NCBI GenBank assembly: GCA_016870325.1
Contig: VGBV01000006.1
Coordinates: forward strand, 1-42,216
DNA: 42,216 bases
Reading direction: 5' to 3'
Origin: Actinomycetota bacterium
GTDB taxonomy: Bacteria > Actinomycetota > Thermoleophilia > Solirubrobacterales > 70-9
The notes beneath the pieces were generated by a model. It was given only the letters and a program-made list of their open reading frames with translations. It had not been told where the DNA came from and ran no database searches. This document shows, piece by piece, positions 2,924-17,131 of the stretch (the first letter of the stretch is position 1; the number at the start of each line of letters is the position of its first letter). Both the position numbers and the translations under genes were made by a program.

Positions 2924-4693
2924 CTACTCGATCTTCGCCAGCAGGTCGCCGGATGAGACGGCCGCGCCGTCGCTGATCGGCAGCTCGGTGACCTTGCCGG
3001 CGCGGTGGGCGGTGATCTCGTTCTCCATCTTCATCGCCTCGATCACGCAGACCAGGTCGCCCTCGGCGACCTCGGCGTCCTTCTGCACGGCCACCTTCAG
3101 CACCGTGCCCTGCAGCGGCGAGGCCAGGTTCTCGCCCGCCGCGGCCGCGCCGCCCCCGCCCTTGCGCTCGCGCTTGGGCGGCGCCTTCAGGCCGGGCGAG
3201 CCGGCGCCGGCGCCCGCGACGGCCTCGCCGATCACCTTGACGTCGAAGAGCTTGCCGCCGACCTCGACCTGGTAGTCCCGCTCGGACTTCTCCGGGCCCT
3301 CTTCGGCATCCGCCGGTCGCGGACGCGAGGCGGACTCGGCGGGCTGTGTGCCCTTGAGCCACTTCTTGTCCTCTGTCAGGTCGCGGCAGGTCTCGCCGCC
3401 CGCCCACTGCTCGGTGGCCAGGATCGCCTGGTGGAAGGGGATCAGCGTGGTCAGCCCGCCGACCTCGTACTCGGCCAGCGCCCGCAGCATCCGACGCGTG
3501 GCGTGCTCGCGGTCGACGTCCCAGACGATCAGCTTCGCGACCATCGGGTCATACAGCGGCGTCACCTCGCCTCCGGCCTCGACGCCGGAGTCGACCCTGA
3601 CGCCCGGGCCCGCGGGCTCGCGGTAGGTCGTGATCCGGCCGGGGGCGGGGGCGAAGTTCTTGTGGGCGGCCTCGGCGTTGATCCGGCACTCGATCGCGTG
3701 GCCGCGCAGCTCGACCTCGTCCTGGCTGACCGAGAGCTCCTCGCCGGCCGCGATCCGGACCTGCTCGCGGACGATGTCCATGCCGGTGACCATCTCGGTC
3801 ACGCAGTGCTCGACCTGCACGCGGGTGTTCATCTCCAGGAAGTAGTAGTCGTCGCCCACCTGCAGACCCTCGATCGTGCCGGCGGAGCGGTAGCCGACCG
3901 CGGCGGCCGCCTCGGTGGCGATCTTGCCGATGCGCTCGCGCATCTCGGCGTCTACGTGCGGTCCGGGCGCCTCCTCGATCAGCTTCTGGTGGCGGCGCTG
4001 GATCGAGCAGTCGCGCTCGCCGAGGTGGATCACGTTGCCCTTGCCGTCGGCCAGCACCTGCACCTCGACGTGGCGCGGGTCCTCGAGGTAGCGCTCGAGG
4101 TAGACGGTCGGGTCGCTGAAGAACTTCTCGCCCTCGCGGGCGGCGCCCTCGAAGGCGTCTTCGAGGTCGTCGGGGCCCATCGCCACGCGGAAGCCCTTGC
4201 CCCCGCCCCCGCCCGCCGCCTTGACCGCGATCGGGTAGCCGATCTCCTCGGCCTTCTTGGCTGCCGCGGGCACGTCGGGCACGGGCTTCGTGTCGCCGGG
4301 GACGATCGGTACCCCCGCCTTCTCCATCAGCGCGCGCGACTCGGTCTTCGAGCCCATCGCCTCGATCGCCTTGGGCGGGGGGCCGATGAAGGTGATCTTG
4401 GCCTTCTCGCAGGCCTTGGCGAAGGGCGCGTTCTCGGCCAGGAAGCCGTAGCCCGGGTGGACCGCCTCGGCACCGCAGTCGGCGGCGACCTGCAGGATCT
4501 TCTCCACGTTCAGGTAGCTCTCGGCCGGGGCGGCGGGGCCCAGCAGGAAGGCCTCGTCGGCCTCGCGCACGTGCGGGGCCTCGCGGTCGGCCTCCGAGTA
4601 GACGGCGACCGACCCGATGCCCATTTCGCGCAGTGTCCGCATCACGCGGATCGCTATCTCGCCGCGGTTCGCGACCAGGACCTTCTCGAACAT
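2924..4693 (-). CDS. Acetyl/propionyl-CoA carboxylase alpha subunit (biotin carboxylase + BCCP)
   Basis: The 589-residue fusion carboxylates its own biotin with ATP and bicarbonate, then passes the carboxyl group to a carboxyltransferase beta subunit to make malonyl- or methylmalonyl-CoA. Residues 1-445 are biotin carboxylase (VANRGEIAIR at the N-terminus, ATP-grasp glycine loop GGGGGKGF at 161-168, EMNTRVQVEH motif). A Pro/Ala-rich linker follows, and residues 520-589 are the biotinyl domain with EAMKM, biotinylated at about Lys555. This is the actinobacterial AccA-type layout. The likely partners PccB (18.6-20.2 kb) and epsilon (17.5 kb) are in the window but not adjacent. An AATACT box ends 8 nt before the ATG. 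Confidence 0.95.
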   Translation of the reverse strand: MFEKVLVANRGEIAIRVMRTLREMGIGSVAVYSEADREAPHVREADEAFLLGPAAPAESYLNVEKILQVAADCGAEAVHPGYGFLAENAPFAKACEKAKITFIGPPPKAIEAMGSKTESRALMEKAGVPIVPGDTKPVPDVPAAAKKAEEIGYPIAVKAAGGGGGKGFRVAMGPDDLEDAFEGAAREGEKFFSDPTVYLERYLEDPRHVEVQVLADGKGNVIHLGERDCSIQRRHQKLIEEAPGPHVDAEMRERIGKIATEAAAAVGYRSAGTIEGLQVGDDYYFLEMNTRVQVEHCVTEMVTGMDIVREQVRIAAGEELSVSQDEVELRGHAIECRINAEAAHKNFAPAPGRITTYREPAGPGVRVDSGVEAGGEVTPLYDPMVAKLIVWDVDREHATRRMLRALAEYEVGGLTTLIPFHQAILATEQWAGGETCRDLTEDKKWLKGTQPAESASRPRPADAEEGPEKSERDYQVEVGGKLFDVKVIGEAVAGAGAGSPGLKAPPKRERKGGGGAAAAGENLASPLQGTVLKVAVQKDAEVAEGDLVCVIEAMKMENEITAHRAGKVTELPISDGAAVSSGDLLAKIE

Positions 4694-8954: not shown

Positions 8955-8967
8955 GCCGATCCCGATG

Positions 8968-8997
8968 CCGCGCAGCCCGCCTAGGCGGGCTGCGCGG
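8968..8997. terminator. 30-bp perfect palindrome, bidirectional terminator
   Basis: CCGCGCAGCCCGCC (8968-8981) is followed by TA and then its exact reverse complement (8984-8997). It sits between the convergent PHP and cysC genes. The TAG stop codon of cysC lies at its centre, so the last codons of cysC form one arm. A stem of up to 14 GC-rich pairs in RNA from either strand is expected to stop transcription, although there is no T tract. Confidence 0.7.
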
Positions 8998-9532
8998 CCG
9001 GGATCAGCTGGCGCTCCTCGAGCAGGGCGATCAGCTTCGCCGCCGACTCCTCTGCGCTCTCGTTCTCCGTATCGAGCGTGATCTCGGGGCTGAGCGGCTC
9101 CTCGTAGGGATCCGAGACGCCGGTGAACTCCTTGATCTCGCCCGCGAAGGCCTTCTTGTAGAGGCCCTTGACGTCGCGGTCGGCGCAGACCTCGACCGAG
9201 GCCTTGACGAAGACCTCGATGAAGCGGTCGCCCATCGTCTCGCGCGCCTCGTCGCGGATCTCGCGGTAGGGCGAGATGGCGGCGGTGATCACCGGAACGC
9301 CGTTGCGGCTCAGCAGGTCGGCCACGAAGGCGATGCGGCGGATGTTGGTGTCGCGGTCCTCCTTGGAGAAGCCGAGGCCCTTGGAGAGGTTCTCGCGGAC
9401 CACGTCGCCGTCGAGGATCTCGAGATTCGAGCCCCTGGCGCGCAGCTCGTCGGAGACGTGCTTGGAGATGGTCGTCTTGCCGGCCCCGGAGAGACCGGTG
9501 AACCAGAGGGTGAAGCCCTTGTCATTGCTCAT
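8981..9532 (-). CDS. cysC: Adenylylsulfate (APS) kinase
   Basis: Phosphorylates adenosine 5'-phosphosulfate to PAPS using ATP. The 183 residues cover the whole family. The P-loop is GLSGAGKT at 13-20, followed by LDGDVVRENL, the FSKEDRDTNIRR APS-binding segment, ISPYREIRDEAR and the DVKGLYKKAFAGEIKEFTGVSDPYE lid region. It is the last gene of the leftward sulfate assimilation run, 121 bp after sat, with a GAAGGAG about 12 nt before the ATG. Because the reductase here is an APS reductase, the PAPS made is more likely used for sulfation or as a side branch than for reduction (inference). Confidence 0.95.
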   Translation of the reverse strand: MSNDKGFTLWFTGLSGAGKTTISKHVSDELRARGSNLEILDGDVVRENLSKGLGFSKEDRDTNIRRIAFVADLLSRNGVPVITAAISPYREIRDEARETMGDRFIEVFVKASVEVCADRDVKGLYKKAFAGEIKEFTGVSDPYEEPLSPEITLDTENESAEESAAKLIALLEERQLIPAAQPA

Positions 9533-13589: not shown

Positions 13590-15122
13590 TTATGCTGCGG
13601 CCGTGCCTGCGGCCACGTCCGCGGGCGCCGGGGCGGCGCGCCGGGCCGCGCGGTAGTCGCCGGGGTTGAGGCGGTGGGTGCGGCGCCGGTACTCGAGCCA
13701 GGGGCCGGGCCAGTTGTTGGTGTTGATGCCGGCCTCCGTCACGTACCAGCTGCTGCCACCGCCCCGCACCCACCTCGTGCGCTGCGAGCGCCGCTCGATC
13801 TCCTCGCGCCAGCGCGCCTGCACCTCCGGTCGCAGGTCGATGTAGCGCAGCCCCTGCTCGCGCAGCCGGCGGATGCCGTCGAGGATGTACCGCATCTGGC
13901 ACTCGAGGGTGAAGGGAACCGAGCCCGCGCCGTGGTTGGTGTTGGGGCCGTAGATCACGAACAGGTTCGGGAAGCCGGCCACCGTGATGCCCAGGTACGC
14001 CTCCGGGCGCTCGGCCCAGACCTCGTTCAGCTCGCAGCCGCCGAGCCCCTCGATCCGCATCGGGGCGACGAAGTCGTGGGTCGAGAAGCCGGTGCCCCAG
14101 ACGATCACGTCCGCGGGGCGCTCGACCCCGTCGGGGCCGACGACGCCGGCCTCGGTGATCCGCTGCACCTGGCCCGAGATCAGCTCGACGTTGTCGCGCT
14201 CGAGGGTCGGGTACCAGTCACTCGTGATCAGCACCCGCTTGCAGCCCAGCTCGTAGTCGGGGGTCGTCCGCTCGATCAGGTCGGGATCCGACAGCGCCGC
14301 GCGCCGGTAGTGGTCGCAGAGCCGCTCGAAGGACTCGGCCATCCACTCCGTCCCGGTGAAGGCGCGGGTCGCGAGCTCGTGAAAGGCCCAGGTGGCGTAC
14401 CGCGCCGCCGCGACCCGGGCCGGGAAGCGGCGGAACAGCTCGCGCTCGGCCTCGCTGTAGGCGCGGTCGTTCTTGGGCGCGATCCACGGGGCGGAGCGCT
14501 GGTAGATCGTCAGGCTCCTCACCTCGGGCGCGATCGCCGGCACGAACTGGATCGCGCTGGCGCCGGTGCCGATCACCGCGACGTCCTTCCCGCTGAGGTC
14601 GCAGTCGTGGTCCCACTCGGCCGAGTGGAAGGCCGGGGCCTCGAAGGAGTCCCTGCCGGGGATCGCGGGGACCTGCGGGTTGGTGAGCTGGCCGCAGGCC
14701 GTGATCAGGACGTCGAACTCGTGGCTCTCGCCGTCGGCGGTGGCGAGGGTCCAGCGGCCCGTCGGCTCGTCGAAGCTCGCCGAGTCGGCCTCTATGCCCA
14801 GGCGCAGGTGCGGCTCGAGCCCGAAGTCCCGCATCACCCCCTGTATGTAGGCCTGGATCTCGGCCTGCGGCGCGTAGCGCCGCGACCACTCGTGTCCCGG
14901 CGCGAACGAGAACGAGTAGAGGTGGGAGGGAACGTCGCAGGCGGCGCCGGGATAGGTGTTGGCCCTCCAGACGCCGCCGACCTCCTCGGCCCGCTCGAAG
15001 ATCGTGAAGTCCTCGATCCCCGCCTGCTGCAGGCGCACGGCCATGCCGAGGCCGCCGAAGCCCCCGCCGACGATGCCGACCGAGATCGGACTTCGGTCAC
15101 CGTTGCTGGAACTCGCGGCCAT
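13590..15122 (-). CDS. Flavin-containing monooxygenase, Baeyer-Villiger type
   Basis: A 510-residue FAD/NADPH monooxygenase that inserts oxygen into ketones (Baeyer-Villiger) or oxidises heteroatoms. The FAD-binding Rossmann motif is GIVGGGFGGLG near residues 16-26, followed by VGGVWRANTYPGAACD, typical of this group. The second, NADPH-binding motif is VIGTGASAI. The fingerprint FxGxxxHxxxW is nearly intact: F-E-A-P-A-F-H-S-A-E-W, with Ala for Gly. The start ATG 15122 has AGGAGG at good spacing. It reads in the same direction as the sulfite reductase gene 100 bp downstream. I see no functional link to sulfur metabolism, and the substrate is unknown. Confidence 0.9.
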   Translation of the reverse strand: MAASSSNGDRSPISVGIVGGGFGGLGMAVRLQQAGIEDFTIFERAEEVGGVWRANTYPGAACDVPSHLYSFSFAPGHEWSRRYAPQAEIQAYIQGVMRDFGLEPHLRLGIEADSASFDEPTGRWTLATADGESHEFDVLITACGQLTNPQVPAIPGRDSFEAPAFHSAEWDHDCDLSGKDVAVIGTGASAIQFVPAIAPEVRSLTIYQRSAPWIAPKNDRAYSEAERELFRRFPARVAAARYATWAFHELATRAFTGTEWMAESFERLCDHYRRAALSDPDLIERTTPDYELGCKRVLITSDWYPTLERDNVELISGQVQRITEAGVVGPDGVERPADVIVWGTGFSTHDFVAPMRIEGLGGCELNEVWAERPEAYLGITVAGFPNLFVIYGPNTNHGAGSVPFTLECQMRYILDGIRRLREQGLRYIDLRPEVQARWREEIERRSQRTRWVRGGGSSWYVTEAGINTNNWPGPWLEYRRRTHRLNPGDYRAARRAAPAPADVAAGTAAA

Positions 15123-15187
15123 CCGTCCTCCTTGGAACCTTCGGCGGGACGATGATCACCGTACCAGCGCCGCGGTCGACCCCGAAC

Positions 15188-15835
15188 TCAGAAGCAGATC
15201 GCCTGGGCCTGCAGCGTGAGCGGGCCCGAGCCACCGGGCGGGCCGCCGTTGACCACGGTGTCGACGAAGGTCCTGCCCACGATCCTGCTCTCGGTGTGGA
15301 CCGGGAGCACCGCGGTCCCGGGCGCGAAGGGACTGTAGAAGCCGCCGCCGGACAGCGCCCGCTTCGGCGTCTTCTTGCCCTTCTTCATGCGCCTTTGCGC
15401 CTTCGAACAGCGGGAGGACTCGCTCAAGGCTTCGAGGTGGGGAACAGTGGCCGTGACCTGGTTGTGCCTGAACGCGGGGACCGGGATATCGGTCGCGCAG
15501 TACGCGTGTGCCGTGATCGTCTGGGCGCCCGTTTTGCTGTTCTGGGCCACCACCCGCCAGTTGCGGACGGGCTTGTTCCCCCCGGAGAACGGGCCGCCTC
15601 CGATGCTCTGTTCGGGGATCGGCAGATGGCCCGCTGGCGGGCCGCTGGTCATCTCGAAGCCACCGCTGATCGCCACCGCCTTAGGGGCACAGGCGGCCTC
15701 GACCAGCACGCTCTGACCTTGCCCGCTGGCGAGGGTTGCTGTCGTCGTCACGTCCTTGACCGCGAGGTTCTTGTTGCGGCAGTACGCATATGCGGTCGCC
15801 GCCCCGCTCTCGGCGACGAGCGTCGCCGAGACGTG
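15188..15835 (-). pseudogene. 3' part of secreted beta-repeat protein, after in-frame TAG
   Basis: This frame is the direct continuation of 15836-16138, separated only by TAG 15836-15838. It holds the end of repeat 1 (..TAYAYCRN) and repeats 2 and 3 of a Cys-containing beta repeat of 80-100 residues. Each repeat runs from VTTTA/VTATV through a CP or CSK segment and (A/L)SGGGF to a W or T..VV stretch and (Q)TITAHAYC or LTLQAQAICF. Repeat 3 contains a Lys/Arg-rich insertion. With no signal peptide of its own it could not be exported if started at the internal GTG 15751. It is listed as a pseudogene piece; read-through or sequence error would restore one protein of 316 codons with 15836-16138. 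Confidence 0.6.
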
Positions 15836-16138
15836 CTAAGCCCGCTTGGAGATTCTGTATGACTCGTTCACCACTAGCGCCCCGCTCGCGCCGAAGGGGG
15901 CGGAGAACCCTCCGCTCACGGCCTGCTTGCGCTTCGGGCAGGTCGCGGTCGCCTCCGAGGTTGTGGCGAGAGTCGTGGCCACCGGGCCGATGGCCGTCGC
16001 GGTCACCACCGGCCCAAGCCCTTTCGGCTTGCGCTCGTGTTTCTCGGCCTGGGCGAGAGGGGCGAGGGCGAGCGCGATCGCGCTCACCGAAACCGCGCAA
16101 CACAGCGGACGCCTGCCGGCATGCTGCCCGCTAGCCAT
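15836..16138 (-). pseudogene. 5' part of secreted beta-repeat protein, ending at in-frame TAG
   Basis: 100 codons from ATG 16138 to TAG 15836. Residues 1-31 are a clear signal peptide: basic N-terminus, hydrophobic core AVSVSAIALALAPL, cleavage after AQA. Then comes the first beta repeat (VTATAIGPV..ATCPKRKQAVSGGFSAPF..VVNESYRISKRA). It stops where repeat 2 of the downstream piece has NWRVVAQ, so the TAG falls at the conserved Trp (TGG to TAG is one base). The start is supported by TATATT ending 6 nt before the ATG. The function of such repeats in actinobacterial secreted proteins is unknown. Confidence 0.65.
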
Positions 16139-16144
16139 GCACGG

Positions 16145-16152
16145 AATATACC
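16145..16152. promoter_or_regulatory. Overlapping divergent -10 boxes, repeat protein / cyclodeaminase gene
   Basis: AATATACC on the + strand. The reverse complement of 16145-16150 is TATATT, ending 6 nt before ATG 16138 on the minus strand. TATACC (16147-16152) could serve the gene starting at 16172. The two start codons are only 33 bp apart. Confidence 0.45.
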
Positions 16153-16171
16153 GATCGGCGCGTCTTCGAAT

Positions 16172-17131
16172 ATGAATCGCGGCGTGAGCGATCTGGCCGT
16201 CATCTCGGGCGAGGCCGTGCTGGCGGCGATCGAGCCGGCCACCGCGGTCGAGCGCACGCGGCACGCGTTCGAGCGCCACGCGGCCGGCGACTGGGCGATG
16301 CCCGCCAAGGTCTACCTCGACAGCCCTCCCCGCGGTGACTTCCGCGCGATGCCGGCGCGCGGGGACGGCCTCGCCCTGCTCAAGTGGGTGACCTCTTTCC
16401 CGTCCAACCTCGAGCGCGGCCTGCCCGCGGTGCGCGGGGTCGTCGTCCTCTCCGACGCCGGCGACGGCCGCGAGCTGGCGGTGATCGAGTGCGCCTCGGT
16501 CACCTCGCTTCGCACCGGCGGCGCCGCTGCGGTCTCGGCCCAGGCGCTGGCCCCCGAGGGCGCGCGCACGGTCGGCGTGATCGGCTGCGGGGTCAACGGC
16601 TCCTGGGCGGCGCGCTGCCTCGCGGCCTGCGGCTACGGACCGGGCGTCTGCTGCGACCCCCGCGCCGAAGCGGCCGAGGCGCTCGCCGCCGAGCTCGGCT
16701 GGGAGGCAGGCGACCGCCGCCGCGCGGCCGACCAGGACATCGTCGTCACCGTCACCCCGGGGGATGCGCCGGTGATCACCAAGGACGGGCTGCGCGAGGG
16801 CCAGCACATCGCCGCGCTCGGCGCCGACGCCCACGGCAAGGCCGAGGTCGAGCTGCAGGCGATCGCCTCCTGCCGGCTCTTCTGCGACGAGTGGGCCCAG
16901 GCGAGCGCCGGCGGCGAGCTCGCCCACGCCGTCGAGGCGGGCGCCGTCGGCCGCGACGACGTCACCCAGATCGGCGAGGTGCTGGCGGCCTCGGCCGACG
17001 GGCGCACCTCGGCCGAGGAGGTGACGCTGTTCGACTCGACCGGGCTCGCGATCCAGGACCTGGCGATCGCCCAGGCGGTGTATGAGGCCTGGCGAGACGG
17101 GGCGGTCGAGGCGCCCACGGTCAGCCTCTGA
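16172..17131 (+). CDS. Ornithine cyclodeaminase / mu-crystallin family protein
   Basis: A 319-residue NAD(P)-dependent enzyme of the ornithine cyclodeaminase, mu-crystallin and archaeal alanine dehydrogenase family. The substrate-binding Lys/Arg region (LLKWVTSFPSN) and the TSLRTGGAAAVSAQAL segment come first. The Rossmann motif VGVIGCGVNGSWAARCL follows near residues 133-149, then the VTVTPGDAPVI loop and the C-terminal LFDSTGLAIQDLAIA signature. Members act on cyclic imines or small amino acids; the substrate cannot be assigned. ATG 16172 is used, with GTG 16184 as an alternative. It is divergent from the interrupted repeat protein and convergent with dodecin. Confidence 0.87.
   Translation: MNRGVSDLAVISGEAVLAAIEPATAVERTRHAFERHAAGDWAMPAKVYLDSPPRGDFRAMPARGDGLALLKWVTSFPSNLERGLPAVRGVVVLSDAGDGRELAVIECASVTSLRTGGAAAVSAQALAPEGARTVGVIGCGVNGSWAARCLAACGYGPGVCCDPRAEAAEALAAELGWEAGDRRRAADQDIVVTVTPGDAPVITKDGLREGQHIAALGADAHGKAEVELQAIASCRLFCDEWAQASAGGELAHAVEAGAVGRDDVTQIGEVLAASADGRTSAEEVTLFDSTGLAIQDLAIAQAVYEAWRDGAVEAPTVSL

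What the first reader, a model, noticed from the sequence alone, without database searches (positions are those of the whole stretch)
15188..16138. Secreted three-repeat protein split by one in-frame TAG at a conserved Trp
The frames 15836-16138 (signal peptide plus repeat 1) and 15188-15835 (rest of repeat 1, repeats 2 and 3) are the same frame, separated only by TAG 15836-15838. Aligning the repeats by eye puts the TAG exactly where repeat 2 has Trp in NWRVVAQ. TGG to TAG is a single change, and both sides keep clean coding character. That points to a very recent nonsense mutation, a sequence error, or amber read-through.
Basis: partly seen in the sequence, partly recalled or inferred. Interest (0 to 1): 0.6.

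Follow-up and report, generated by a model that had tools for sequence, protein, structure and literature searches.

The report
Nonsense-interrupted secreted β-prism gene copy
One of eight copies of a secreted three-repeat protein in an uncultured actinobacterium carries a premature stop where relatives have a conserved tryptophan; it is most likely an ordinary broken or polymorphic copy of a dispensable gene, with no sign that the organism reads this stop as an amino acid.

Summary
One frame (15188-16138, minus) encodes a signal peptide and three Cys-bounded repeats, and is broken only by TAG at 15836-15838. Relatives have Trp in that column in 39 of 42 repeats. The window lies in a metagenome-type assembly with eight paralogs. 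A second one (contig C78) also has one interior TAG, at a different place. Seventeen long relatives in other genomes have none.

Genome-wide recoding is rejected. There are no in-frame stops in 18,180 frame-resolved codons compared with the sister species. Three intact paralogs end in TAG, RF1 is present, no CTA tRNA was found among 43, and no pyrrolysyl-tRNA synthetase passes its cut-off. Sequence error is disfavoured but cannot be excluded without reads.

The best reading is two independent nonsense alleles in a dispensable, lineage-specific family. The sister species has no members and has the two flanking genes directly adjacent. The TAG copies also have lowered GC3. Family-restricted leaky read-through is not excluded. 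The read-through product is predicted to fold like the pseudo-threefold β-prism of the PCSK9 C-terminal domain and the apicomplexan APCβ domain; this is the more interesting by-product.

The parts
15188..16138 (-). whole interrupted gene (ATG 16138 to TGA 15190-15188), 316 codons plus stop, one interior TAG
16046..16138 (-). predicted signal peptide, residues 1-31 (cleavage after AQA inferred from sequence)
   Evidence: sequence; aligned with paralog signal peptides
15779..15940 (-). repeat 1, Cys67 to Cys120, contains the TAG
15836..15838 (-). in-frame TAG, codon 101, in the column that is Trp in 39 of 42 repeats of other proteins
15808..15831 (-). perfect 10-bp hairpin with a 4-nt loop, starting 4 nt after the TAG; significance doubtful
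15497..15691 (-). repeat 2, Cys150 to Cys214 (contains NWRVVAQ)
15194..15409 (-). repeat 3, Cys244 to Cys315 (F instead of W)
13590..15122 (-). flanking flavin monooxygenase-like gene, 76% identical in the sister species
16172..17131 (+). flanking gene resembling ornithine cyclodeaminase, head to head with the interrupted gene; adjacent to the monooxygenase in the sister species

Best explanation
The gene is a real nonsense-interrupted copy (a young pseudogene or a strain-level null allele) of a small, secreted, disulfide-rich three-repeat protein in a dispensable multi-copy family. Translation stops at codon 101 inside repeat 1. The truncated exported fragment has only one of the six repeat cysteines and cannot complete even one repeat. 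The part after the TAG has no signal peptide. A second paralog (contig C78) has independently acquired the same kind of lesion. The intact paralogs probably still make the extracellular three-bladed beta-prism protein. Shown: the TAG, the conserved Trp column, intact paralogs, the second TAG paralog, absence from the sister species, lack of genome-wide recoding. Inferred: loss of function, the recent date, and extracellular location.
For: Conserved Trp column with TAG in it. Intact paralogs in the same genome: C2, three in tandem on C105, C12, C27. A second interior TAG in the C78 paralog, at another position. No in-frame stop in 18,180 frame-resolved codons compared with the sister species. 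Stops enriched in this family, Fisher p about 0.01. Family absent from the sister species by profile search, whose monooxygenase and cyclodeaminase-like genes lie directly head to head without it. The two TAG copies have the two lowest GC3 values of eight paralogs, 0.877 and 0.890 against 0.933 pooled for the others (p about 1e-4, post hoc). TAG takes about 67% of the single-step nonsense opportunity in these GC-rich genes under an assumed transition weight of 4, so two TAGs are not surprising. RF1 present, no CTA tRNA, and intact paralogs use TAG as their true end.
Against: Everything downstream of both TAGs is intact: no frameshift, no second stop, all cysteines kept. That would need recent lesions in both, or some continued selection. 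Two lesions of the same kind in one family of eight is mildly suspicious. No reads, strains or orthologs could be examined.
Confidence: 0.7

Rival explanations
1. Sequencing, assembly or strain-mixing error: the true genome has a sense codon at 15836-15838.
For: The record looks like a metagenome assembly (247 contigs, 93% complete). One base makes the difference. A strong hairpin lies just after the site, and such places can cause errors.
Against: No false stop in 18,180 ortholog codons, so the stop-creating error rate is below about 1.7e-4 per codon (95%). Two stops fall in about 2,400 family codons (p about 0.01). The C78 site has no comparable hairpin (z 0.26).
Confidence: 0.12
2. Family-restricted leaky amber read-through: a small share of ribosomes reads through the TAG, giving low-level full-length protein, perhaps as expression control of redundant secreted paralogs.
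For: Two paralogs with interior TAG and completely intact downstream parts. Both TAGs are followed by C. A perfect 10-bp hairpin begins 4 nt after the window TAG (folding z -2.15). Precedent for short-lived in-frame stops under purifying selection in bacteria (PMC7918605).
Against: The two TAGs are at unrelated positions. The C78 TAG has no unusual downstream structure. Perfect hairpins of this size occur about once per 11 kb in this genome. Seventeen long relatives in other genomes have no interior stop. No suppressor tRNA or PylS.
Confidence: 0.12
3. TAG is a sense codon in this organism (suppressor tRNA, pyrrolysine or code change).
For: Two interior TAGs in one family.
Against: No in-frame stop in 18,180 codons. 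RF1 present. 43 tRNAs with no CTA anticodon, down to weak scores. PylS hits far below cut-off. Three intact paralogs end in TAG just after their last conserved region. A tRNA in the roughly 7% missing from the assembly cannot be excluded: His and one Arg tRNA were not found either.
Confidence: 0.02
4. The two parts are two separate functional genes, the second starting at an internal start codon.
For: An in-frame GTG at 15751 opens 187 codons.
Against: That product would have no signal peptide and would begin after Cys120, outside repeat 1. Relatives are single-chain three-repeat proteins.
Confidence: 0.02

Closest known systems
In-frame stop codons in otherwise intact bacterial genes (Belinky et al. 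2021, PMC7918605)
   Same: Single nonsense codon in an otherwise undamaged frame, TAG included; such alleles are described there as widespread and mostly short-lived.
   Different: That study required the stop to be shared by orthologs of two or more species; here no ortholog was found, so persistence and dN/dS cannot be tested.
PCSK9 C-terminal (V / Cys-His-rich) domain
   Same: Best Foldseek match of the predicted read-through fold: 7anq, E 8e-7, probability 1.0, TM 0.58 on the target; three repeats, pseudo-threefold beta-prism, disulfides.
   Different: About 15% identity; two cysteines per repeat here; free-standing secreted bacterial protein, not fused to a protease.
Apicomplexan perforin-like protein APCbeta domain (TgPLP1, PvPLP1; PMC6294395)
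   Same: Foldseek 7pln, 6d7a and 5ouo at E 5e-5 to 3.5e-4, and the only, weak, sequence-profile hits in the PDB (E 0.45 and 0.8). Three beta-rich repeats with pseudo-threefold symmetry and disulfides.
   Different: No MACPF domain here; two disulfides per subdomain there; no evidence of membrane binding; low TM (0.33-0.40).
Stop-codon recoding by pyrrolysine or suppressor tRNA
   Same: In-frame TAG.
   Different: No PylS above cut-off, no CTA tRNA, no TAG in conserved genes.

Membership tests
Nonsense-interrupted gene (young pseudogene or null allele) | in-frame stop inside a conserved domain, with intact homologs | tested here: met
   TAG in a column that is Trp in 39 of 42 repeats; six intact paralogs in the same genome
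Nonsense-interrupted gene (young pseudogene or null allele) | relaxed selection (dN/dS near 1) after the stop | tested here: inconclusive
   no ortholog, paralogs about 30% identical; only lowered GC3 against fully kept motifs
Nonsense-interrupted gene (young pseudogene or null allele) | stop present in the organism, not an error | tested here: inconclusive
   no reads held; error rate bounded by no stops in 18,180 codons
Amber recoding (code change, suppressor tRNA, pyrrolysine) | TAG inside conserved genes across the genome | tested here: not met
   none in 18,180 frame-resolved codons
Amber recoding (code change, suppressor tRNA, pyrrolysine) | tRNA with CTA anticodon or PylS/PylT; loss of RF1 | tested here: not met
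   no CTA among 43 tRNAs; PylS hits 23 bits against a cut-off of 178; RF1 at 467 bits
Programmed read-through | stop conserved in relatives, with a shared stimulatory signal | tested here: not met
   17 long relatives without interior stop; the two TAG sites share neither position nor structure
Programmed read-through | full-length product made | not testable with these tools
   needs reporter or mass spectrometry
PCSK9 V-domain / APCbeta type beta-prism | three tandem beta-rich repeats in pseudo-threefold arrangement with disulfides | tested here: inconclusive
   AF2 model pLDDT 81, pTM 0.80; Foldseek probability 1.0 but TM 0.33-0.58; three Cys-pair repeats; homology by sequence not shown

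The most novel reading that the evidence does not exclude
In this lineage a family of secreted beta-prism proteins keeps individual copies behind in-frame amber codons, so that rare read-through sets a low dose of particular paralogs, without any general recoding of TAG.
Probability: 0.08. Interest if true: 0.6.

Novelty: new member of a known kind. Interest (0 to 1): 0.25.

Why it matters
For genome reading it is a caution: a clean single in-frame TAG in a high-GC genome is expected to be the commonest form of nonsense lesion and is not evidence of recoding. The more useful by-product is a family of secreted three-repeat proteins in a group related to Solirubrobacterales, without a Pfam or NCBIfam model, whose predicted fold resembles the PCSK9 C-terminal domain and the APCβ domain of apicomplexan perforins. 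If confirmed, that would give free-standing bacterial examples of a fold so far described as an uncommon β-prism variant.

Tried and rejected
Interior stops reported by the search tool in relatives (L009, L012, L016, L020 and weaker hits) proved to be terminal stops read past the gene end or spurious matches; only C78 (L118) was real. A first survey of interrupted genes with a codon model was useless because antisense shadow frames dominated. Surveys by tblastn against the sister species also gave mostly shadow frames; the clearest cases had a better uninterrupted frame, a few stayed ambiguous; the window-by-window frame-resolved count replaced them. A tblastn run timed out. A first hairpin count left out the window by a script error and was repeated. 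A scan of public genome contigs with this protein found no relative. Pfam and NCBIfam gave nothing significant. No paper on stop codons in this class was found.

Full report
Observation. On the minus strand, 16138 to 15188 is one frame: ATG, a signal-peptide-like start, three repeats and a TGA, broken only by TAG at 15838-15836, codon 101. It is not a chance open frame. A search of the same genome with the whole read-through protein matches paralogs from residue 9 to residue 302, across the TAG. Aligning 45 repeats of 15 family proteins puts the TAG in a column that is W in 39 of 42 repeats of other proteins, and W and F in repeats 2 and 3 of this protein. All six repeat cysteines, the GG motifs and the C-terminal end are kept.

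Setting. The window is contig C6 of an assembly of 2.5 Mb in 247 contigs, 93% complete. The nearest named relative of a flanking gene is a Solirubrobacterales metagenome genome. The genome has eight copies of the family: the window copy, one on C2, three in tandem on C105, and one each on C12, C27 and C78. The same-genus species G001 has none by profile search. There the monooxygenase and the cyclodeaminase-like gene that flank the window copy are directly head to head. In the Baikal genome L086 a different gene, alpha/beta-hydrolase-like by eye, occupies the gap. The gene is therefore accessory.

A second case. The profile search flagged the C78 copy, and reading it shows one interior TAG at contig position 1739, between signal peptide and repeat 1, with three intact repeats after it. 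Other interior stops reported in relatives were terminal stops read past the end, or spurious matches. Seventeen long relatives in other genomes have none.

Is TAG recoded? About 1.15 Mb of this genome and 0.45 Mb of the sister species were compared. In windows where the coding frame could be decided by amino-acid identity, third-position bias and composition, 18,180 codons held no stop of any kind. RF1 is present at 467 bits. The 43 tRNAs include no CTA anticodon, and relaxing the threshold adds only two poor fragments. PylS hits are far below the cut-off. Paralogs on C2, C12 and C27 end in TAG at the expected place. Genome-wide recoding is rejected. A tRNA in the missing 7% of the genome cannot be formally excluded; tRNA-His and one tRNA-Arg were also not found.

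Is it an error? No reads are held. The absence of stops in 18,180 codons bounds the stop-creating error rate at about 1.7e-4 per codon. Two in roughly 2,400 family codons is an enrichment with p about 0.01, found after the fact. Error is disfavoured, not excluded.

Read-through or null allele? For read-through: both downstream parts are intact, and at the window site a perfect 10-bp hairpin begins 4 nt after the TAG, with folding z -2.15. Against: hairpins of that size occur about every 11 kb here, the C78 site has no unusual structure (z 0.26), the sites are at unrelated positions, and no relative in another genome has a stop. About 67% of single-step nonsense opportunity in these genes leads to TAG, under an assumed transition weight of 4, so two TAGs need no special cause. 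The two TAG copies also have the lowest GC3 of the family, 0.877 and 0.890 against 0.933 pooled (p about 1e-4, post hoc, with approximate limits for two paralogs), and the neighbouring genes have 0.96. That suggests weaker constraint or expression, or a foreign origin. It does not date the stop: decay long enough to move GC3 this far should have left more lesions (inference). Published work describes single in-frame stops in bacteria as widespread and mostly short-lived (PMC7918605). An ordinary nonsense allele in a redundant family is the most economical reading.

What the protein is. Pfam and NCBIfam have no model for it. The read-through sequence, with the TAG read as Trp and aligned to ten relatives, gives an all-beta model with pLDDT 81 and pTM 0.80. 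Foldseek's top matches are the PCSK9 C-terminal domain (E 8e-7, TM 0.58 on the target) and the APCbeta domain of perforin-like proteins. The latter is also the only, weak, profile hit in the PDB. The literature describes these two as a pseudo-threefold double-layered beta-prism with disulfides linking the layers (PMC6294395). The three Cys-bounded repeats here fit that plan. Each repeat would be one blade and the Trp lies at the start of a predicted strand (residues 100-107), so stopping there leaves less than one blade. Binding or membrane function is not shown.

Verdict. The explanation is ordinary: a nonsense-interrupted, probably non-functional copy in a dispensable secreted family, with a second such copy in the same genome. 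Leaky amber expression remains possible but unsupported.

Noticed in passing
L118 1240-1242 (G000 contig C78, position 1739): A second paralog of the same family has an interior in-frame TAG between signal peptide and repeat 1, at a position that aligns with Gln in repeat 2 of the C12 paralog.
   Followed up: yes
window 15188-16138; L002-L006, L118, L119: Secreted three-repeat family without a Pfam or NCBIfam model, with a predicted pseudo-threefold beta-prism fold like the PCSK9 C-terminal domain and apicomplexan APCbeta; eight copies here, none in the same-genus species.
   Followed up: partly
window 15123-16171; L082 around 3009-3036; L086 1857-2590: The gap between the monooxygenase and the cyclodeaminase-like gene holds different cargo in relatives: nothing in G001, an alpha/beta-hydrolase-like secreted gene in the Baikal genome, the repeat protein here.
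   Followed up: partly
L005, L004, L003 (G000 contig C105, 4866-7543): Three intact paralogs in tandem; two of them share an almost identical signal peptide, which suggests recent duplication.
   Followed up: no
window 8967-8998: Perfect 14-bp inverted repeat with a 4-nt loop, among the strongest hairpins in the window.
   Followed up: no
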